Source: Methanospirillum lacunae
GTDB taxonomy: Archaea > Halobacteriota > Methanomicrobia > Methanomicrobiales > Methanospirillaceae
Direction of reading: 5' to 3'
Assembly (NCBI RefSeq): GCF_003173355.1
Contig: NZ_QGMY01000009.1
Location: 1-64,000 of the forward strand
Length of the DNA: 64,000 bases
Each line of letters begins with the position of its first letter. The stretch's first letter is position 1. The notes beneath the pieces were generated by a model, which was not told where the DNA came from, searched no databases, and worked only from the letters and a program-made list of their open reading frames with translations. Shown here piece after piece: positions 36,160-49,076 of this stretch. A program made the position numbers and the translations under genes.

Positions 36160-36941
36160 TTCTCAATGCAGACGAACTGAAATTCCTGTACAGAAACAGA
36201 ACCGTTCTTGAGAATGTCGCACTTGAAGTAAATCATGGAGAGATTGTTGCGATTCTGGGACCAAACGGGGTTGGAAAGACAACACTCCTTAAATGTCTCA
36301 ACCGTATCCTGACACCAAGGAGCGGACATATCTATCTGGATGGTGCAGATGTCAACAGTCTTGACAATCTTGAGATCGCACGACGTGCAGGATATGTTCC
36401 CCAGCGGGTAGAAACCGGAAGACTGACCGCTTTTGATGCGGTCCTTCTTGGTCGCCGTCCTCATATCAAATGGGATGTTACTCCTCATGATTTGAGCATC
36501 GTTGATGCTGTCTTCACCCGGCTTTCCATGGAGCAACTCCGTCTCTCATACATCGATGAGATGAGTGGTGGAGAACTCCAGAAGATTGCAATCGCCAGGG
36601 CCCTTGTCCAGGAACCACGGATTCTCCTTCTTGATGAGCCCACCAGCAGCCTGGACCTCAAAAATCAGGTTGAAATCCTCTCAACGATCCATGGAATCGT
36701 GCGTGAACATGGGATAGCTGCCGTCATGACGATGCATGATCTCAACCAGGCTTTCAGGTACGCAGATCGGTTTATCTTCCTGAAAAATGGCAGAATCCAT
36801 TTCCAGGGAGAGAGATGCTCTGTCACCACGAAGATGATCGAAGAGGTCTATGGTCTGCCGGTTGTCATGGGAACCATAGAAGGTATCACCTGTATCATGC
36901 CCGGGTGTTCAGACACCGTGGTAGTACACCAGGAGAATTAA
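36156..36941 (+). CDS. FecE/BtuD-type ABC ATPase
   Basis: A 261-residue ATPase. Walker A is LGPNGVGKTTLLKCLNRIL, the signature MSGGELQKIAIARALVQE, Walker B ILLLDEPTS, and the H-loop MTMHDLNQ. The start at 36156 overlaps the permease stop; a frame extension to 36012 lies inside the permease. It energises import of the ligand captured by the binding protein. Confidence 0.94.
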   Translation: MILNADELKFLYRNRTVLENVALEVNHGEIVAILGPNGVGKTTLLKCLNRILTPRSGHIYLDGADVNSLDNLEIARRAGYVPQRVETGRLTAFDAVLLGRRPHIKWDVTPHDLSIVDAVFTRLSMEQLRLSYIDEMSGGELQKIAIARALVQEPRILLLDEPTSSLDLKNQVEILSTIHGIVREHGIAAVMTMHDLNQAFRYADRFIFLKNGRIHFQGERCSVTTKMIEEVYGLPVVMGTIEGITCIMPGCSDTVVVHQEN

Positions 36942-36949
36942 AGATTTAC

Positions 36950-37585
36950 ATGTGTTCAAACGATTCAACAAAACCAGACCAGCAGCCTGAATACGCATCA
37001 TTTCAAGATGCTGCAGAGTTTCACGGCCACGTATGCATCGGCCTTTCAAGCGGGTATCAGGTTGCAATTGCAGCAATGAAGGCACTTGGTGTTACAAGAC
37101 CCCATGACGAAGAACTCGTTGCCATCGCAGAGACAGACGCCTGCGGAGTTGATGCCATCCAGGTGGTCACCGGATGCACTGCAGGAAAAGGAAACCTGAT
37201 CATCCATGACTACGGCAAACATGTATTCACCTTTTACTGCCGGGAAAGTGGCAAAGCCGTACGGGCTATGACCTGCCTTGAAGAGTTCATGCCGAGAGAC
37301 CCCGAAGCCGAAGGACTCAGGACCCGAGTATTTTCAGGAAAAGCAACTGAAGAAGAAAAAGCAAGGTTTCATGCAATGACTGAAAATGCTTCAAAAGCCA
37401 TTCTTGATGCTCCACCTGAAAAAGTAGTAAAACTGGAGTTCATTCAGATGGAACCTCCAAAAAAGGCACGAATTTTTACCTCAATCCCATGTGGATGTTG
37501 TGGAGAGATGGTTGCAGATGCAAAGACCCGGGAACATGAAGGGAAACGAATCTGCATGCCGTGTTTCCTGAAATTAAATCAATAA
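36950..37585 (+). CDS. Cytoplasmic FmdE-family protein with zinc finger
   Basis: About 211 residues with no signal peptide. The FmdE domain occupies the first 150 residues (EFHGHVCIGLSSGYQVAI, ETDACGVDAIQVVTGCTAGK), and a C-terminal treble-clef finger has CGCCGE and CMPCF. It starts eight bases after the ATPase stop. The paired exported and cytoplasmic FmdE proteins around one importer suggest a metal or metal-cofactor uptake route with a receiving protein on each side of the membrane; the ligand is not determined. Confidence 0.85.
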   Translation: MCSNDSTKPDQQPEYASFQDAAEFHGHVCIGLSSGYQVAIAAMKALGVTRPHDEELVAIAETDACGVDAIQVVTGCTAGKGNLIIHDYGKHVFTFYCRESGKAVRAMTCLEEFMPRDPEAEGLRTRVFSGKATEEEKARFHAMTENASKAILDAPPEKVVKLEFIQMEPPKKARIFTSIPCGCCGEMVADAKTREHEGKRICMPCFLKLNQ

Positions 37586-39291: not shown

Positions 39292-40191
39292 ATGGAAGAG
39301 ATTGTATTAGGCATTGGTATTACTGCATTGGCGGGAGCACTTGCCACAGTTGCCGGTGCTGCGGAAGATACTGAATCTGATATCGGATCACAGGGTGACC
39401 CGAACTCACAGGTTCAGCTCGCTCCGCAGATGGGATATATCCACCGCATCTTCAACAAGGCAGTCTCCGGTGAGCCACCAGCATACGGGCTTTGGTGTGC
39501 CATTGGAGCTGGAGTGGCCTGGGCTTTCTTGCAGCTTAACTACAACCCGGCTCTTGCTATCATCCTTGGTTCAATAGTTGCGGTGTTTGTTCAGGGTATC
39601 TACTGTACATCAGGTTACCTCGGACGTACCGCAAGTCTGGCCAAGTTCAAGCAGCCGGTCTATATCGACATTCTGAAGTCTTTGACTTCAGTGACGATGG
39701 CTCATGCGTTTGTCGCGATATTTTGTACCACAGCAGTGTGTTACCTGATGTCGGCAGCGTTGCACCACCCGTTCGCACTTCCGCTCCTCGGTCTTATCTG
39801 GGGTATAGCGCTTGGTGCAGCAGGGTCAGCATCAGGAAACCCGTTCTACGGAAAGGAACGCCAGTACCAGAACCAGAAGTTCGGAGCTGGTGTTCCAATC
39901 TCTGCATCCGGTAACATTGTCCGGTATGCAGAAGCAGGTCAGCGGTCTTCCCTTGACAACGGATGGTTTACCACCAAGTTTGCCGGTCCGGCATCAGGGA
40001 TCTGTTTTGGTCTGATTGTGTTCCTTGAACTCTGGCGTACCGTTCTCTTTGAGAAGGCACTAGCCGGATGGGGAGCAGTCATCGCAGGAATCGTTCTTAT
40101 TCTGGTCTTCACATTCATCGATCGCTGGATTGAAGTCTGGGGACGCAAGACCTACGGACCATACACTGAACCAGAGGAGACTTCATCATGA
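39292..40191 (+). CDS. mtrE: Tetrahydromethanopterin S-methyltransferase subunit E
   Basis: A 299-residue integral membrane subunit of the sodium-pumping complex that transfers the methyl group from methyl-H4MPT to coenzyme M. Recognised from the early phrase ALAGALATVAGAAEDTESDI, the segment GYIHRIFNKAVSGEPPAYGL and the end WGRKTYGPY. About six transmembrane helices. It opens the operon; the stop overlaps the mtrD start (ATGA at 40188). Confidence 0.96.
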   Translation: MEEIVLGIGITALAGALATVAGAAEDTESDIGSQGDPNSQVQLAPQMGYIHRIFNKAVSGEPPAYGLWCAIGAGVAWAFLQLNYNPALAIILGSIVAVFVQGIYCTSGYLGRTASLAKFKQPVYIDILKSLTSVTMAHAFVAIFCTTAVCYLMSAALHHPFALPLLGLIWGIALGAAGSASGNPFYGKERQYQNQKFGAGVPISASGNIVRYAEAGQRSSLDNGWFTTKFAGPASGICFGLIVFLELWRTVLFEKALAGWGAVIAGIVLILVFTFIDRWIEVWGRKTYGPYTEPEETSS

Positions 40192-41033
40192 GTGCACTCG
40201 GAGGAAAGGCAGCTGGTGGCGACAGCATCAACCCTGTTGGAACCGTTGTCGGTCTAGTTATCATTCTGGTTTCAATTGGAATTACCGCTGTACTCGGTTC
40301 ATCCCTCGTTATTCCCCTCATCGGGATTATCGTCGGTGGTGCACTGATTGCATTCGGTGTTCACTTCGTCCCTGTCGGTGGAGCACCGGCAGCAATGGGT
40401 CAGGCACCAGGTATCGCAACTGGTGTGGCAATGCTCGCAGCAGGTGCCGGTCTTGCCGGTCTGTTCGGTGGGGCATGGGCATTTGAGACCACTGGCGACT
40501 TCTTAATCTCCATCATCGGAGGAGCAGTCGGCGGTGGCCTTATGATGGCAATCACCTGTTTGATGGTGAACGCAACCTATGTCTTTGCCATGGGTATTCC
40601 TGCAGCATCTGGAAAGATCGCAAAGGACCCAATCACTGGTGACACCTTCCCAGAATACAAATCCCAGGGAACTGAGGGACACGGTCTGCCATTCATCTCC
40701 TTTGTTGGTGGTGTAATTGGTGGACTTATCGCTGGTCTTGGAGGAACGATCATCTATATCGAACTTCTGGATGCATACAGCACTGGTCTCGCAACCCTTA
40801 TGCAGGCAAAACCAGAAGCAATTGCTCCACTTGCAATATCTCTTGCAGGAATCTTTGCAATTGGATTCTTCCTGGTCAACGCAGTGCTCGCAGCATACAA
40901 CATCACCGGTACCATCGAAGGACCACATGACCCCAAATTCAAGCGGGTTCCCCGTGCAATCATCGGTTGTGCCGTTGCATCTGCATTCTGTGGTCTCATC
41001 TCACTGCTGCTGGTGACCAACATCGGAATGTGA
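40188..41033 (+). CDS. mtrD: Tetrahydromethanopterin S-methyltransferase subunit D
   Basis: A 281-residue Gly/Ala/Ile-rich membrane subunit with six to seven helices. Its internal phrase FPEYKSQGTEGHGLPFISFV and the Pro-Gly rich helices are typical of MtrD, which with MtrC and MtrE forms the membrane part that pumps sodium. It overlaps mtrE by four bases and precedes mtrC by nine. Confidence 0.95.
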   Translation: MSALGGKAAGGDSINPVGTVVGLVIILVSIGITAVLGSSLVIPLIGIIVGGALIAFGVHFVPVGGAPAAMGQAPGIATGVAMLAAGAGLAGLFGGAWAFETTGDFLISIIGGAVGGGLMMAITCLMVNATYVFAMGIPAASGKIAKDPITGDTFPEYKSQGTEGHGLPFISFVGGVIGGLIAGLGGTIIYIELLDAYSTGLATLMQAKPEAIAPLAISLAGIFAIGFFLVNAVLAAYNITGTIEGPHDPKFKRVPRAIIGCAVASAFCGLISLLLVTNIGM

Positions 41034-41042
41034 GGAGAAGAC

Positions 41043-41939
41043 ATGACAGCAAAAATGGAAGCATCAGAAGGTAAAATGCCTCACAACAAGCTGTTGACCT
41101 ATGGACTGGTCATCGCTGTCGTAGGCACATACCTCACCTATCTCAACGTACTCACCGGCGTTGCGGTATTCTCCTTCTTCGGAGGAATTGCTGCAGTCGC
41201 CGCCATCTGGTGGGGTTCTGACACGATCAAGCACCTCTGCAGTTACGGTCTTGGAACCGGTGTTCCGTCAGCAGGTATGATCGCATTCGGTTCCGGGGCA
41301 ATCGCCATGATTGTCGGTACCAAGTTCGGCATTGCATCGCCGATTGTAACCGTTATCCTGGCAGCAATTCTCGGAGCAGTCATCGGATACACCGCTAATA
41401 ACATCATCAACATGAACATCCCGGTGATGATCATGTCCCTGATGGAACTTGCAATTGTCGGTGCACTGACAATGCTCGGGTTTGCATCAATGGCAACCGG
41501 TTCGTTTGAGTTCAACCAGCTGATCATCGGAAGCATGTCCCTTTCAGTAGAGAATGCCGGAGCAGCAGCAGGTGGGGCACAGACTTTCCTTGTCACTGCA
41601 ATCCCACAGTACGGAAACTCCCTTATTGGTGGTGCAGCACTCGCAGTGATCTTCTTCCTCGGTGCACTCGCACTCCAGCACCCATTCAACGCCTGCCTTG
41701 GTCCGAATGAGTCACAGGACCGCACGCTTATGCTTGCACTCTCCTGTGGATTCCTCTCTATGATCGTCGTAGCCGTCATCTCACTTGTGTTCCTTGGACT
41801 CCTTGCAGGAGTAATCAACCTGGTCATCTCACTGATCGCCTGGTTCTACTGCTACAAGACATACATCGACCTCTCCAAGCGTGACGCCTATGCATGGCTT
41901 GATTCAAAGCCAATCATTGAGGTCGGAGGTGACCAGTAA
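41043..41939 (+). CDS. mtrC: Tetrahydromethanopterin S-methyltransferase subunit C
   Basis: A 298-residue membrane subunit with seven to eight helices. Typical phrases are GLGTGVPSAGMIAFGSGAIA, LMLALSCGFLSMIVVAVISL and the end KRDAYAWLDSKPIIEVGG. It starts nine bases after mtrD with SD GAGGAGAAG. Its stop overlaps the mtrB start (TAATG at 41937-41941). Confidence 0.95.
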   Translation: MTAKMEASEGKMPHNKLLTYGLVIAVVGTYLTYLNVLTGVAVFSFFGGIAAVAAIWWGSDTIKHLCSYGLGTGVPSAGMIAFGSGAIAMIVGTKFGIASPIVTVILAAILGAVIGYTANNIINMNIPVMIMSLMELAIVGALTMLGFASMATGSFEFNQLIIGSMSLSVENAGAAAGGAQTFLVTAIPQYGNSLIGGAALAVIFFLGALALQHPFNACLGPNESQDRTLMLALSCGFLSMIVVAVISLVFLGLLAGVINLVISLIAWFYCYKTYIDLSKRDAYAWLDSKPIIEVGGDQ

Positions 41940-42226
41940 TGACCTGGGTCCCAGTACTGCCCGAGTTTGGTCTCGGATGTGACGTGTTCGCAGGTTTTGT
42001 CTCCCAGCAGGGTGAGTCACTTGCACCCATCATTGCACAGGTTGACAAACTGGACAAGACTGCTGATGATATCGTTGGAATGCTCTCCGGAGAAGGTAAC
42101 TTCCTTGAGTCATTCCCACACCGTGAGAAGTCCCTCGTATATGCAGGAGCCATTACCTCTCTGTGGTATGGGCTTGCAGTCGGACTTCTGCTGGCAGGTG
42201 TCATCGTACTGGCCTTATTGAAGTGA
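41939..42226 (+). CDS. mtrB: Tetrahydromethanopterin S-methyltransferase subunit B
   Basis: A 95-residue subunit: a soluble N-terminal part (VAGFVSQQGESL-like VFAGFVSQQGES, AQVDKLDKTADDIVGML) and one C-terminal membrane helix (YGLAVGLLLAGVIVLAL). The size and position between mtrC and mtrA match MtrB. Confidence 0.93.
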   Translation: MTWVPVLPEFGLGCDVFAGFVSQQGESLAPIIAQVDKLDKTADDIVGMLSGEGNFLESFPHREKSLVYAGAITSLWYGLAVGLLLAGVIVLALLK

Positions 42227-42236
42227 GGTGATATAG

Positions 42237-42974
42237 ATGGCAAACAAAAAATCACCGGCCAGTGGCTGGCCGATTGTTCAGGGTGACTTCCACACAGGAG
42301 ATCCCCAGAGCCCGGTCGCAGTCGTGACCATGGGTTCACACCTTGACGAGCAGGCGATCTGTAATGCAGGAGCGGCAATCGCCGGATCCTGTAAGACCGA
42401 GAACCTCGGACTTGAGAAAGTTATTGCAAATATCATCTCAAATCCGAACATCAGATACGTACTCACCTGCGGTACTGAAGTCAAGGGTCACCTCTCAGGA
42501 CAGAGTCTTATCGCTCTGCACCAGAGTGGTATTACCGGCGGTAAAATCGTCGGATCCAAAGGCGCTATTCCGTTCATCGAGAACCTGTCCGCTGAGAATA
42601 TCAAGCGGTTCCAGGATCAGGTTGAGATGGTCGATATCATGGAAGCAGAAGATATCGGTGCCATTTCAGCAAAAATCAATGAACTCAAGGCCAAAGATCC
42701 AGGCGCATTTGACGCTGAGGCAATGATCGTTGAGATCAAGGATGAAAGCGGCGGAAGTGGCGACGCGGAAGGAGCAGAAGTCCGTCCGATGTCTGCTGAA
42801 GTTGCACTCATTCACGCCCGGATGAAGACCATCCAGATGCTCGTTACCGACATTGGATACCAGGACAAATTTGCAGCTGGTGTCTATGGAGGAAAAGTCG
42901 AGGGTCTGATGATCGGTCTCATCGTCTCGTTTGTGATTGTCGGACTCCTTCTCATGGGACACGGGGTGGCATAA
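42237..42974 (+). CDS. mtrA: Tetrahydromethanopterin S-methyltransferase subunit A, copy 1
   Basis: A 245-residue corrinoid subunit. The cobamide-binding domain (about 10-170) carries the ligand His in [14 protein letters not shown] at residue 85. After a Gly-rich linker, the tail (about 195-245: [10 protein letters not shown] then [12 protein letters not shown]) is a single membrane helix with the same pattern as MtrF. The methyl group moves from MtrH to cob(I)amide here. The corrinoid domain is repeated in the gene at 43178. Confidence 0.95.
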
Positions 42975-43178
42975 ATGGCAGACGACGAGAAGAAAGCAGG
43001 CCCGGTCAGAATGGCAGCAATCGAGGCCATGGTCTCTGATATCAAATACAAGGGTCAGATCCTTGCACGAACAAACAAACTCGAATCTGGTGCTATGGAC
43101 TCCGGTCTTATCGGGTTTGCCATCGGTCTTGCAGTAGCACTTCTGATGGTTGTTCCAGTCCTTCTGGGGGTACTGTAA
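42975..43178 (+). CDS. mtrF: Tetrahydromethanopterin S-methyltransferase subunit F
   Basis: A 67-residue single-helix subunit: a short polar head ([20 protein letters not shown]) and a membrane helix ([20 protein letters not shown]). Length and the DIKYKGQ/LAR phrase match MtrF. It starts with the base after the mtrA stop and ends overlapping the next start (TAATG). The first-copy MtrA tail has the same pattern, pointing to common origin. Confidence 0.9.
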
Positions 43179-43921
43179 TGGCAGACAAGGGAGACGCAGC
43201 ATCTGGCTGGCCAATCGTACAGGGTGATTTCCATACCGGTGACGTAAAAAGTCCGGTTGCAGTTATCACCATGGGTTCACACCTTGACGAGCAGGCAATC
43301 TGCAATGCAGGAGCTGCAATCGCCGGATCCTGTAAGACCGAGAACCTCGGACTTGAAAAGGTAATTGCAAACGTCATTTCAAACCCGAACATCAGGTTTG
43401 TCCTGACCTGTGGTACTGAAGTGAAGGGTCACCTTTCCGGTCAGAGTCTTATCGCTCTGCACAAGGACGGAGTTAACGGCGGAAAGATCGTCGGCTCCAA
43501 GGGTGCTATTCCGTTCATCGAGAACCTCACTGCAGACAACATCAAGCGGTTCCAGGAGCAGGTTGAGATCGTTGATATCATGGAGGCCGAGGATATCGGC
43601 GCTATCTCCGCAAAGATCAACGAACTTAAAGCACGTGACCCAGGGGTATTCCCAGGCGGACCAATGGTCGTTGAGATCAAGGAAGAAGGGGGAGGCGGAG
43701 CCGCTGTAGCAGCCACTGCAAATCCACAATTCCTTGAGATCGAGGCAAAACTCGATGCAATCGAGACGAAACTTGAGTTCGTTAACGGAGAAATGACCCA
43801 GCGTGTAGGCCGCAAGGTCGGACGTGATATCGGTATTCTGTACGGTATCGTTGCAGGTCTGATGACATATGTCATTGTGACAGAATTACTGCCAAAACTG
43901 CTTCATTTGATCGCAAAATAA
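43178..43921 (+). CDS. mtrA: MtrA-MtrG fusion (second MtrA copy)
   Basis: A 247-residue protein in the place of mtrG. Residues 1-170 repeat the MtrA corrinoid domain, including the ligand His at 85 in [14 protein letters not shown]. After a Gly/Ala linker, residues about 183-247 are Mtr[47 protein letters not shown], one membrane helix. No separate mtrG exists in the operon, so the fusion supplies it. The complex could then carry two corrinoid domains per unit. Whether both bind cobamide is open, but no key residue is lost. Confidence 0.9.
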
Positions 43922-43934
43922 GAGGTGATGTTAG

Positions 43935-44957
43935 ATGTTCATGTTTGAGAAGGAACAGACGGTCCTTGACTTCAACGGTCACAAGATCGGAGGACAGCCT
44001 GGAGAATACCCACGCGTGCTTGGTGCATCCATATTCTATAACAAGCACGAAACCGTGCTCGACGAGCACACCGGCAAGATTGACAAGGCTAAAGCAGAGG
44101 CTCTCTGGAACAGGTGTCTCGAGCTCTACGACGCTACCGGCAACTGGTACTTCTGCCAGATCATCGCCGAGTACGGCGAGGCATTCGAGAGCTACTTCAG
44201 CTGGTTCACCGAGATCGATGATGAGTTCCCATTCCTGATGGACTCCTCTGCACCTTCTGCACTTGCACATGCATGCAAGTACGTTACCGAAGTCGGTATC
44301 GCAGACCGTGCAGTCTACAACTCTATCAACGGTTCAATCGGACCAGAGAACATCGAGGCTATCAAGAAGTCCGATGTCGATGCAGCAATCGTTCTCGCAT
44401 TCAACCCCGGTGACGCAAGTGTCCGTGGTCGTGAGAAGGTGCTGACTGATGGTGGTGTTGCAGGTCAGGAGAAATCCATGATTGCAATTGCCGAGGAAGC
44501 AGGTATCAAACGCCCAATCCTCGACACAGCAGCAACCCCGCTCGGTCTCGGTTCTGGTGGCTCATTCCGTGAGATCCTTGCATGCAAGGCAATCCACGGT
44601 CTGCCAACCGGTGGTGCATACCACAACATGACCGTGTCCTGGACCTGGCTCAAGCGCTGGAGAAAGAACGGTATTCTTGACCGGTACAAAGATGCAGGCG
44701 TACTGCTTGAACAGATGGGCCACCACCACTTCGGCGGTGTTGAGGGTATCCGTCAGGCAGCCTGGTCCGCACCAGATATCGGATGTAACATTATGGCAGG
44801 AACGCTCGGTGCAGATCTGCTTATGTTCGGTCCAATCGAGAACTGTGAAGCCGCTGCAACCTCAATGGCATTCACTGATATCGTTCTCGCCGAGACCCTC
44901 CGTGAACTTGGTGGCGACATCAAAGAGCCAAACCACCCAATCAACAAGCTGGTATAA
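43935..44957 (+). CDS. mtrH: Tetrahydromethanopterin S-methyltransferase subunit H
   Basis: A 340-residue soluble subunit that binds methyl-tetrahydromethanopterin and passes its methyl group to the MtrA cobamide. The TIM-barrel fold shows NGHKIGGQPGEYPRVL near the start, YNSINGSIGPENIEAIKKSD and LADTAATPLGLGSGG-like DTAATPLGLGSGGSF in the middle. SD GAGGTGA precedes ATG 43935. It closes the operon, followed by a strong terminator. Confidence 0.96.
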   Translation: MFMFEKEQTVLDFNGHKIGGQPGEYPRVLGASIFYNKHETVLDEHTGKIDKAKAEALWNRCLELYDATGNWYFCQIIAEYGEAFESYFSWFTEIDDEFPFLMDSSAPSALAHACKYVTEVGIADRAVYNSINGSIGPENIEAIKKSDVDAAIVLAFNPGDASVRGREKVLTDGGVAGQEKSMIAIAEEAGIKRPILDTAATPLGLGSGGSFREILACKAIHGLPTGGAYHNMTVSWTWLKRWRKNGILDRYKDAGVLLEQMGHHHFGGVEGIRQAAWSAPDIGCNIMAGTLGADLLMFGPIENCEAAATSMAFTDIVLAETLRELGGDIKEPNHPINKLV

Positions 44958-45308: not shown

Positions 45309-46346
45309 ATGATTGGTGCACAAATCAGGGAAGATATTAGTAGTATCCTACAGAAAGATCCTGCAGCACGGAGCAGAATTGAAATATTATTTTGCTACCC
45401 GGGTCTACATGCCCTAACAATACACAGGGTGGCTCACAGGCTCTGGTTAAGAGAACACCGGCTTGCTGCACGCTTTCTCTCTCATATTTCCAGATTTTTT
45501 ACAGGTATTGAAATCCATCCGGGAGCAACAATAGGAAGACGAGTTGTTATCGATCATGGTATGGGGGTTGTTATCGGAGAGACTGCAGAAGTTGGTGATG
45601 AAGTACTACTTTACATGGGAGTTGTTCTGGGTGGGACAACATTAACTAAAGTTAAAAGGCATCCAACTCTTGGAAAAGGTGTTGTTATCGGTTCGGGTGC
45701 TGCAGTTCTTGGCCCGGTGACTCTTGGTGATTATGCAAAGGTTGGGGCAGGTGCTGTTGTTGTCAGGGATGTTCCACCAGGTGCTACAGTTGTCGGTGTT
45801 CCAGGAAGAATTGCCGGACTCAAGAGACACCCTACTCAGGATGATATCAGGGATAATGAAATGCCTGATCCCACACTCCGGGTTATCAGCAGAATGCTTG
45901 AACGCCAGAGTTCACTTGAGGAGAAGATCCAAAAACTTGAGAAGGATCTGGTCTGTATCAGACAACAGGCACCTGTTACTCCGATATCAGATCGTGAAGC
46001 CGAAATCTGGGCAGCACTCAGACAGATCATTGATCCTGAGATCGGTCATAATATTGTCGATGTGGGTCTGATAAAATTGGTGGAGATAACCGAGGAAGAT
46101 GTTAATGTTGAAATGTCACTCAATACCGAGTCATGTCCACTACTTGAATACCTGGTAAATCAGGTAGAAAACAGGCTTAAACTCATCGAATGGGTTCGTA
46201 TTGTCAAGGTAGAAGTAATTCATGACCCTTGGGAATCTGAAACTTGCCAGAATACATTAATTCATTACAATGAAAAATCTGAAGGTGAGAAACAACCTGA
46301 AGATTTCGAAATGTTAAACCAGAACCATCCTCCTTCAGTTGGATGA
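45309..46346 (+). CDS. cysE: Serine O-acetyltransferase fused to MIP18/DUF59 domain
   Basis: A 345-residue protein. Residues 1-175 are a SAT: helical N-terminus, then left-handed beta-helix hexapeptides ([40 protein letters not shown]) with the catalytic Asp-His pair, ending [11 protein letters not shown] coiled coil (about 195-220) leads to a DUF59 (MIP18/SufT-like) domain at 228-305 with [19 protein letters not shown] and [10 protein letters not shown], a Cys at 276. SAT makes O-acetylserine for CysK. DUF59 proteins act in Fe-S assembly, so the fusion couples cysteine supply with cluster biogenesis, which is inference. Confidence 0.9.
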
Positions 46347-46469: not shown

Positions 46470-47441
46470 TTATCCAAAATTTCCGCCTGAATGACTACTG
46501 CCAGAATCGGGACTAGTACCGGAACGATCACTACCAAACCCAGAATCCCTACCGGAATAACCGCTCTCAATACTTGAGCCTGTGCCGGAACGATCACTAA
46601 CAGAACCAGAATCCCTACTGGAATGTCCATTATCAAGACCAGGGCTAGTACCGGAACGGTAACTGTCAGAACCGGGACCAGTGACGGAATAGCCATTACC
46701 AATTCCAGGGCTAGTATCGGAATAGTAACTGTCAGAACCGGGACCAGTGACGGAATAGCCATTACCAATTCCAGGGCTAGTATCGGAATAGTAACTGTCA
46801 GAACCGGGACCAGTGACGAAATAGCCATTACCAATTCCAGGGCTAGTATCGGAACGGTAACTGCCAGAGCCGGGACCAGTGACGGAATAGCCATTACCAA
46901 TTCCAGGGCTAGTATCGGAATAGTAACTGTCAGAACCGGGACCCATGCCGGAATAGTCATTACCAATTCCAGGGCTAGTACCGGAACGGTAACTGTCAGA
47001 ACCGGGACCCATGCCGGAATAGCCATTACCAAGACCGGGGCCAGTAGATGTTGTTTCGGACGAATCGCTAGATGTGTCTATCATATGATAAGCATATCCA
47101 ACATTGTACCATCTGTTATCATATCCCCCACTTAGTTCTACAGCACGCCTGAATGCAAACCAGGCCTGGTTTTGCATATTTTTAGCTCCATATGCGAATC
47201 CTAAATTATTCCATACTGATGGAACAACAGGGTCGATCGAAATAGCTCTCATAAAAGAAGACAATGCAGCATCATAATTACCTTCACTGTAATATTGCTT
47301 CCCTCTTTCATTCCATTGTGTAGCAGTCCTATCAGCAGAGCTGAACCCGATGGAGAGCAGTAAACAAATTATAATGAGAGTTAATACAACAGATGGAAAC
47401 ATTTGTTGAATAGATTGGTATGACTTTGAAACCGAATTCAT
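46470..47441 (-). CDS. Exported TPR protein with eight 22-residue repeats
   Basis: About 323 residues. ATG 47441 was chosen (SD GGGAGG 11 bases upstream); in-frame ATGs at 47450 and 47465 are possible. A membrane/signal segment (VVLTLIIICLLLSIGFSSA) is followed by a two- to three-unit TPR (YYSEGNYDAALSSFMRAISI) to about residue 130, then a Gly/Ser/Tyr-rich domain of eight imperfect 22-residue units (pattern GPGSDSYxSxTSPGIGNGYS) and a short end. The repeat domain is extended and probably surface exposed. It stands on the opposite strand between cysE and cysK. Confidence 0.75.
   Translation of the reverse strand: MNSVSKSYQSIQQMFPSVVLTLIIICLLLSIGFSSADRTATQWNERGKQYYSEGNYDAALSSFMRAISIDPVVPSVWNNLGFAYGAKNMQNQAWFAFRRAVELSGGYDNRWYNVGYAYHMIDTSSDSSETTSTGPGLGNGYSGMGPGSDSYRSGTSPGIGNDYSGMGPGSDSYYSDTSPGIGNGYSVTGPGSGSYRSDTSPGIGNGYFVTGPGSDSYYSDTSPGIGNGYSVTGPGSDSYYSDTSPGIGNGYSVTGPGSDSYRSGTSPGLDNGHSSRDSGSVSDRSGTGSSIESGYSGRDSGFGSDRSGTSPDSGSSHSGGNFG
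46482..47009. repeat. Eight tandem 66-bp repeats in the TPR gene
   Basis: Eight consecutive 66-bp units, each one 22-residue protein repeat, run through the 3' half of the minus-strand TPR gene. Units 2-6 are the most alike; the last two have drifted (DSGSVSDRSGTGSS type). Copy number is likely variable by slippage. Confidence 0.85.
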
Positions 47442-48019
47442 ATGAATCATAACCTCCCTTATCATTAAAATATAAAAATGATTCGTCGAAAACTAAAAAA
47501 TATCATTATAACACTCGTTCCATTCTCCCCATTTAAGATGAATTTCGTCATAATATTACTTCAAAAGCAATAAATGGCGTAGTCAGACCTACAGATGGAA
47601 TATCTCTGGAAAATGCGAACATATACCTTATCCCATAATCAATAAATGAACCAGAAGAATTCTAAACTTTTTTAATTCCATCGGAAAAGAAAAGAGATTG
47701 ATACCGACTGGGTAGTGAATAGGATACGTATTGAACAGTTACCAGAATTACTTGAACGGAAATAGTATCTGCCAAAAAATCGCGTAAAAATTTATGAAAC
47801 AATAAGGATCGATATAGATGCAACTCCTACTTTTAGAAAAAACCAGAATTCAATAATTGTGGTGAACTATTACTGATTGCTTCATCTGATTATGACATAA
47901 TAATTGGGTTATTACCTCCCTTACCATCTCTTCATGTAGACGTTAAAAGCCATATTATGGGCCCAATTTGACCGAGATACTGCCACAGGCATCGAGGCTT
48001 TTTTTTCCGGTTTGGAATA
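47442..48019. other. Non-coding gap upstream of the TPR gene and cysK
   Basis: About 580 bases, AT-rich, with no ORF having an SD or recognisable product. A coding-looking frame at about 47692-47880 is interrupted by a stop and may be a decayed remnant. The cysK promoter begins at its right edge. Confidence 0.5.
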
Positions 48020-48125: not shown

Positions 48126-49076
48126 ATGGGACGAATTTACAATGATATTACCAAAACGATAGGAAATACCCCACTTATCCGCCTTAACCGTATAACCAAG
48201 GGATTAAACACACAGACATTTCCACCAACAATCCTGGTAAAACAGGAGTCACGAAACCCTCTCGGGAGTGTGAAGGACAGGATAGGCGTTGCCCTGATCG
48301 AGGCAGCAGAACGAGATGGTCTCATTAAACCGGGAACGACAATTATTGAGCCCACAAGTGGGAATACCGGGGTTGCACTGGCATTTGTTGCTGCTGCCAA
48401 AGGGTACCGCCTGATCCTCGTGATGCCAGAATCATTCAGTATTGAGAGGAGGAAACTTTTCAAGGCACTTGGAGCAGAACTTATCCTCTCCCCGGCGACA
48501 GAGGGTATGACTGGTGCAGTAAACCTCGCTGAAAAGATTCATAGTGAGCACCCTGACAGTTATCTTGTCCCGCAACAATTCAAAAATCCAGCAAATCCGG
48601 AGATCCACCGGAGAACAACAGCAGAAGAGATCTGGAATGACACAGACGGGCAGGTTGACATCGTTGTTGCGGGAGCAGGAACAGGGGGAACCATCACTGG
48701 CATTGCTTCTGTATTAAAGTCCAGAAAGGCATCATTCAGGGCAATCGCTGTGGAAGCTGCAGCATCTCCCGTAATCTCGGGTGGAAAACCAGGAAAGCAC
48801 AAGATCCAGGGTATAAGCCCGGGGTTTGTTCCAGATGTTCTTGGTGTGAATCTGCTTGACCAGGTAATTCAGATCACAGATGAAGAGGCCTACGAGTATG
48901 CACGACGACTAGCATCAGAAGAAGGAATTCTTGCAGGGCCATCATCGGGTGCAGCAGTGGCAGCAGCAATGAAACTCGGATCTCTTCCGGAAAACGCCGG
49001 AAAGCTGATTGTTGCCATCCTCCCGGACACGGGAGAACGGTATCTCTCAACAGATCTCTTTGAATATTCAGAATAG
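48126..49076 (+). CDS. cysK: Cysteine synthase (O-acetylserine sulfhydrylase)
   Basis: A 316-residue PLP enzyme that makes cysteine from O-acetylserine and sulfide. The PLP lysine lies in [14 protein letters not shown], the phosphate-binding and substrate loops are [12 protein letters not shown] and [13 protein letters not shown], and [12 protein letters not shown] is near the C-terminus. Length is normal. SD GGAGG lies just upstream of ATG 48126. It is convergent with cysS. Confidence 0.95.

What the first reader, a model, noticed from the sequence alone, without database searches (positions are those of the whole stretch)
43178..43921. MtrA-MtrG fusion: a second corrinoid domain in the methyltransferase complex
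Between mtrF and mtrH, where mtrG is expected, is a protein with a full MtrA cobamide domain (ligand His 85 kept in [14 protein letters not shown]) joined to an MtrG tail ([18 protein letters not shown] plus helix). No free mtrG is present. The operon thus encodes two MtrA domains, one tethered through MtrG, which could double the corrinoid per complex or give the second domain a different role.
Basis: partly seen in the sequence, partly recalled or inferred. Interest (0 to 1): 0.8.

Follow-up and report, generated by a model that had tools for sequence, protein, structure and literature searches.

The report
Known MtrA-MtrG fusion in Methanospirillum methanogen
In this methane-producing archaeon the small membrane subunit MtrG of the sodium-pumping methyltransferase carries a second, fully conserved vitamin-B12 domain; the fusion is real and order-wide, but it was described in 2015, and what remains open is what the second domain does.

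Summary
Window 43178-43921 encodes a complete MtrA cobamide domain (Pfam 1.8e-81, ligand His85 kept), a flexible linker and a nearly complete MtrG (Pfam 1.1e-21). It lies between mtrF and mtrH, and the 99.9%-complete genome has no other MtrG. It is not new: Wang et al. 2015 (PMC4632066) named this gene mtrA-2b, the mtrA-G fusion of Methanomicrobiales, and described its homogenisation with mtrA-1 by gene conversion.

What I add: (1) across the order, every MtrG checked whose 5' side can be read is fused; apparent short ones are contig ends or N gaps. In the phylum sample, listed MtrG outside the order are free. (2) His85 is kept in 59/59 MtrA-1 and 66/66 fusion domains, with strong purifying selection (dN/dS about 0.04-0.06 in Methanospirillum). 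(3) In Methanospirillum, unlike most of the order, conversion has largely lapsed: the copies differ at about 11-15% of residues and form separate clades. Fixed differences lie only at residues 3-24 and 159-161, none in the core. This favours a second equivalent B12 shuttle over a new role. (4) The solved M. mazei complex holds six MtrH but three MtrA, so 6 MtrA : 6 MtrH is a testable prediction.

The parts
39292..40191 (+). mtrE
   Evidence: Pfam MtrE 1.3e-130
40188..41033 (+). mtrD
   Evidence: Pfam MtrD 6.4e-93
41043..41939 (+). mtrC
   Evidence: Pfam MtrC 1.6e-70
41939..42226 (+). mtrB
   Evidence: Pfam MtrB 9.4e-28
42237..42974 (+). mtrA-1: canonical MtrA (cobamide domain plus MtrAc stalk helix)
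   Evidence: Pfam MtrA 3.9e-85; NCBIfam TIGR01111 4.5e-102
42975..43178 (+). mtrF; its stop overlaps the start of the fusion (TAATG)
   Evidence: Pfam MtrF 1.3e-19; sequence
43178..43921 (+). mtrA-2b: MtrA-MtrG fusion gene
   Evidence: Pfam MtrA 1.8e-81 and MtrG 1.1e-21 in one open frame
43190..43693 (+). second MtrA cobamide domain
   Evidence: PF04208 match; AlphaFold model superposes on apo MtrA 5l8x (rmsd 1.3, TM 0.94 by target)
43430..43432 (+). codon of cobalt-ligand His85
   Evidence: sequence; invariant in 66 of 66 fusion domains
43685..43723 (+). flexible Gly/Ala-rich linker (about residues 170-182)
   Evidence: pLDDT below 50 at residues 170-187; length similar to the mtrA-1 linker
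43721..43882 (+). MtrG part (stalk and membrane helix)
   Evidence: PF04210 match; single helix 183-246 in the model
43935..44957 (+). mtrH
   Evidence: Pfam MtrH 2.3e-93

Best explanation
The gene is mtrA-2b, the order-wide mtrA-mtrG fusion of Methanomicrobiales. Its C-terminal part replaces free MtrG in the central stalk of the Na+-pumping methyltransferase. Its N-terminal part is a second working cobamide carrier, held on a flexible linker at the cytoplasmic end of the stalk next to the MtrH dock. It would accept methyl groups from MtrH and deliver them to coenzyme M at MtrCDE, like the domain of MtrA-1, so each protomer has two B12 shuttles and the trimer six. Shown here: the fusion, absence of free MtrG, intact ligand, purifying selection on the second domain, linker architecture. 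Inferred: cobamide loading, assembly of both proteins into one complex, six copies, equal function.
For: Both profiles match in one frame; sole MtrG in the genome; one MtrG per listed genome of the order, fused wherever readable among those checked. His85 is invariant in 59/59 MtrA-1 and 66/66 fusion domains. dN/dS is 0.062 for MtrA-1 and 0.043 for the fusion domain within Methanospirillum. All fixed differences between copies lie at residues 3, 5, 6, 24 and 159-161. Linkers are 11-14 and 12-15 residues. No ATG, GTG or TTG start in the window's linker that would yield a free MtrG. Structures place the MtrA and MtrG N-termini at the same cytoplasmic end of the stalk, and show three MtrA but six MtrH per complex. 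Wang et al. 2015 describe the same gene.
Against: No biochemical or structural data on an Mtr complex from Methanomicrobiales were found, so B12 content and stoichiometry are unmeasured. Conserved sequence does not prove that both domains are used at once. Six carriers around three MtrCDE cavities could interfere with each other. In the M. mazei structure the second MtrH of each dimer is thought sterically hard to reach.
Confidence: 0.72

Rival explanations
1. The second domain is a specialised carrier with its own role, for example reactivation of oxidised cobalt, a regulatory cap on MtrCDE, or use under other conditions, so the two domains are not equivalent.
For: In Methanospirillum the copies have largely stopped being homogenised: about 11-15% aa difference, separate clades for MtrA-1 and the fusion domain. 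Methanomicrobium pairs are 83% identical.
Against: Fixed differences in the genus lie only in the first 24 residues and at 159-161; none is in the core 25-158, which holds most of the residues modelled to contact MtrH or MtrCDE. Most other genomes of the order have domains 91-100% identical, which leaves little room for a different role.
Confidence: 0.13
2. Gene dosage or passive redundancy: the fusion arose by tandem duplication, the MtrG helix became essential, and the attached MtrA domain is kept mainly by gene conversion from mtrA-1 and not because two carriers help.
For: Gene conversion between the copies is well documented and visible here as 98.3% median paralogue identity against about 75% between orthologues.
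Against: In Methanospirillum conversion has largely lapsed, yet the fusion domain stays under purifying selection (dN/dS 0.043) with His85 kept. A useless domain should decay there. A comparable fusion (to MtrF) arose in Methanococcales and in Methanocella, and Wang et al. cite both mtrA paralogues as essential.
Confidence: 0.1
3. The fusion is an artefact of assembly, frameshift or gene calling, or a free MtrG is made from an internal start.
For: Near-identical mtrA copies do appear to break or collapse assemblies in this order.
Against: All 27 single-contig genomes listed have an MtrG frame of 244-303 codons. The same architecture is seen in named isolates (L008, L015, L038, L062). No in-frame ATG/GTG/TTG occurs in the window's linker.
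Confidence: 0.03

Closest known systems
mtrA-2b, mtrA-G fusion of Methanomicrobiales (Wang et al. 2015, PMC4632066)
   Same: Same gene, same place between mtrF and mtrH, same domain order, same relation to mtrA-1.
   Different: In Methanospirillum the copies do not cluster by species; the paper sampled one species of this genus (M. hungatei JF-1), and the pattern shows only with several (seven here).
mtrA-2a, mtrA-F fusion of Methanococcales and Methanocella arvoryzae (PMC4632066)
   Same: A second MtrA domain on a single-helix stalk subunit whose N-terminus lies at the same sheet beside MtrH.
   Different: Fused to MtrF instead of MtrG; independent origin; located between mtrA-1 and mtrG.
Canonical Mtr complex of M. 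marburgensis (8Q3V) and M. mazei (9QTQ)
   Same: All eight subunit types are present; the MtrA domain and MtrG helix match by sequence, the MtrA domain also by fold.
   Different: There MtrG is free and there is one MtrA per protomer.

Membership tests
MtrA (PF04208, TIGR01111) | Full cobamide-binding domain over profile cut-off | tested here: met
   272.3 bits against 25; model matches 5laa and 5l8x at rmsd 1.3-1.4
MtrA (PF04208, TIGR01111) | Axial cobalt ligand His84/85 | tested here: met
   Present in the window and in 66/66 fusion domains
MtrA (PF04208, TIGR01111) | C-terminal MtrAc stalk helix | tested here: not met
   Replaced by MtrG; the fusion carries an MtrA domain but is not a canonical MtrA subunit
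MtrA (PF04208, TIGR01111) | Carries 5-hydroxybenzimidazolyl cobamide | not testable with these tools
   Needs purified protein
MtrG (PF04210, TIGR01149) | Profile match over cut-off, long single helix | tested here: met
   77 bits against 27 and 77.1 against 50.65; helix 183-246
MtrG (PF04210, TIGR01149) | Free small subunit | tested here: not met
   Fused in the window and wherever readable among those checked in the order; free in listed hits outside the order
mtrA-2b of Wang et al. 2015 | MtrA domain fused to MtrG between mtrF and mtrH, with a separate mtrA-1 upstream | tested here: met
mtrA-2b of Wang et al. 2015 | Paralogues cluster within species (reported evolutionary pattern, not part of the gene's definition) | tested here: inconclusive
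   35 of 55 pairs are sisters, but seven Methanospirillum species form separate MtrA-1 and fusion clades; support for placing the window's own copies is weak, 55/85 and 61/95

The most novel reading that the evidence does not exclude
The fusion brings the complex to six MtrA carriers matched to six MtrH active sites. The MtrG-tethered domain serves the membrane-distal MtrH that appears idle in the M. mazei structure, giving two alternating methyl shuttles per Na+ pump. Fusions to MtrF and to MtrG would be separate solutions to the same unused-site problem.
Probability: 0.2. Interest if true: 0.6.

Novelty: already known. Interest (0 to 1): 0.3.

Why it matters
Mtr is the sodium-pumping step that couples methyl transfer to energy conservation in methanogenesis. 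The Mtr structures cited here come from organisms with one B12 carrier per protomer, whereas two orders of methanogens encode two. If both work, the one-carrier shuttle model needs revision for those orders. Methanospirillum is a good test system because its two domains can be told apart by sequence and by mass spectrometry, unlike the near-identical copies in most of its relatives.

Tried and rejected
Internal translation start giving free MtrG: the linker codons were read in the loci; the window has no ATG/GTG/TTG there and linker Val codons are mostly GTC/GTT/GTA. Genomes with apparently free MtrG: 26 regions with short frames were fetched; 23 end at a contig edge and three (L089, L099, L107) have N gaps; MtrA sequence is still joined wherever enough of the gene is left. 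A separate mtrG elsewhere in the genome: none. A third MtrA: none. Strong recent conversion in the window: only a short tract near codons 47-59, p about 0.02 uncorrected over seven species, so weak. A literature search for Methanospirillum mtrA work found nothing.

Full report
Observation. The ORF at 43178-43921 is a single open frame of 247 aa. Pfam finds MtrA at residues 5-172 (1.8e-81) and MtrG at 182-235 (1.1e-21); NCBIfam mtrG also passes its curated cut-off. The tail aligns to the MtrG chains of both solved Mtr complexes. mtrF ends in TAATG, so the fusion starts inside the mtrF stop, with GGGGGT a few bases upstream (sequence). The operon reads mtrE-D-C-B-A1-F-(A2-G)-H with every subunit identified. 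The whole genome holds one MtrG and two MtrA. The closest named relatives are Methanospirillum.

Known already. Wang et al. 2015 (PMC4632066; [quoted passage not shown] They showed that the MtrA domains of the two copies are homogenised by gene conversion. A 2018 follow-up lists mtrA among long-lasting cases. The finding is therefore a correct rediscovery.

Distribution. 179 of 232 genomes of the order have an MtrG match, 127 of 135 among those at least 90% complete, with one match per genome in every row listed. All 27 single-contig genomes have MtrG inside a frame of 244-303 codons. Short frames were checked: 23 of 26 fetched end at a contig edge and the other three hold N gaps inside mtrA-2. 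The near-identical mtrA copies seem to break assemblies, so draft genomes understate the fusion. In the phylum sample, the listed MtrG matches outside the order lie in short free frames of 73-143 codons and cover the profile from position 1-4, whereas the fused ones mostly start at position 5-11 (the match list was cut).

Is the second domain working? His85 is invariant in 59 MtrA-1 and 66 fusion domains, and the two sets share most of their roughly 70 invariant positions. Within Methanospirillum dN/dS is 0.062 (MtrA-1) and 0.043 (fusion). Linkers are short, Gly/Ala-rich and of similar length in both proteins (median 12 against 14 residues). The AlphaFold model shows an MtrA domain, a low-confidence segment 170-187 and one long helix 183-246; the domain superposes on apo M. 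jannaschii MtrA (5l8x) and cobalamin-bound Methanothermus fervidus MtrA (5laa) at rmsd 1.3-1.4. The model is of moderate confidence (mean pLDDT 76) and rests on 32 sequences.

Conversion in this genus. Across 55 loci with both copies (54 relatives and the window), paralogues are 98.3% identical (median) against about 75% for orthologues, and 35 pairs are sisters in the tree. Methanospirillum differs: 85-89% identity, and the MtrA-1 and fusion domains of seven species form two clades. Support is good for the clades without the window (96/98 and 94/96) but weak for placing the window copies (55/85 and 61/95), so conversion may have lapsed before or just after this species split off. Only short tracts of possible later conversion remain (window codons 47-59, p about 0.02 uncorrected; one stronger case in L006). 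Methanomicrobium and some Methanocorpusculum pairs also are not sisters. Fixed differences between the copies in the genus are residues 3, 5, 6, 24 and 159-161 only. Where conversion no longer forces identity, no fixed difference has arisen in the core, which argues for equal function.

Mechanism. In the solved complexes the stalk is (MtrABFG)3 with all N-termini at the cytoplasmic end. The MtrA cobamide domain swings on a disordered linker between MtrH and the MtrCDE cavity. In M. mazei the N-termini of MtrB, MtrF and MtrG form a sheet beside the MtrH dock, and three MtrH dimers give six MtrH for three MtrA. Attaching an MtrA domain to MtrG (here) or MtrF (Methanococcales) puts a second carrier next to the first, and would give six carriers for six MtrH. 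The authors of the structure think the distal MtrH is hard to reach for the normal MtrA; a second tether might change that. This last step is my inference and is untested.

Verdict. It is already known. The remaining interest is the untested function of the second carrier, for which Methanospirillum is a useful system.

Noticed in passing
window 45309-46346 (+): Serine-acetyltransferase-like hexapeptide protein fused to a C-terminal FeS_assembly_P (MIP18/DUF59) domain, residues 230-303 (PF01883 1.9e-15), upstream of a cysK-like gene at 48126.
   Followed up: partly
window 46470-47465 (-): TPR protein whose C-terminal half is built from 66-bp tandem repeats (6.5 copies, 91% matches), encoding GIGNGYS-type units.
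   Followed up: partly
L013, L027, L054: Draft contigs where mtrB is followed directly by an MtrA-MtrG gene with no mtrA-1 or mtrF; no MtrF in those drafts. Probably assembly collapse between near-identical mtrA copies; a real deletion is not excluded.
   Followed up: partly
L045: A contig labelled Bacilli bacterium carries a Methanomicrobiales mtr operon; probably mis-binned.
   Followed up: no
window 36815-37585 (+): FmdE-family protein with a weak match to a C-terminal dksA/traR-type zinc finger, a little upstream of the mtr operon.
   Followed up: no
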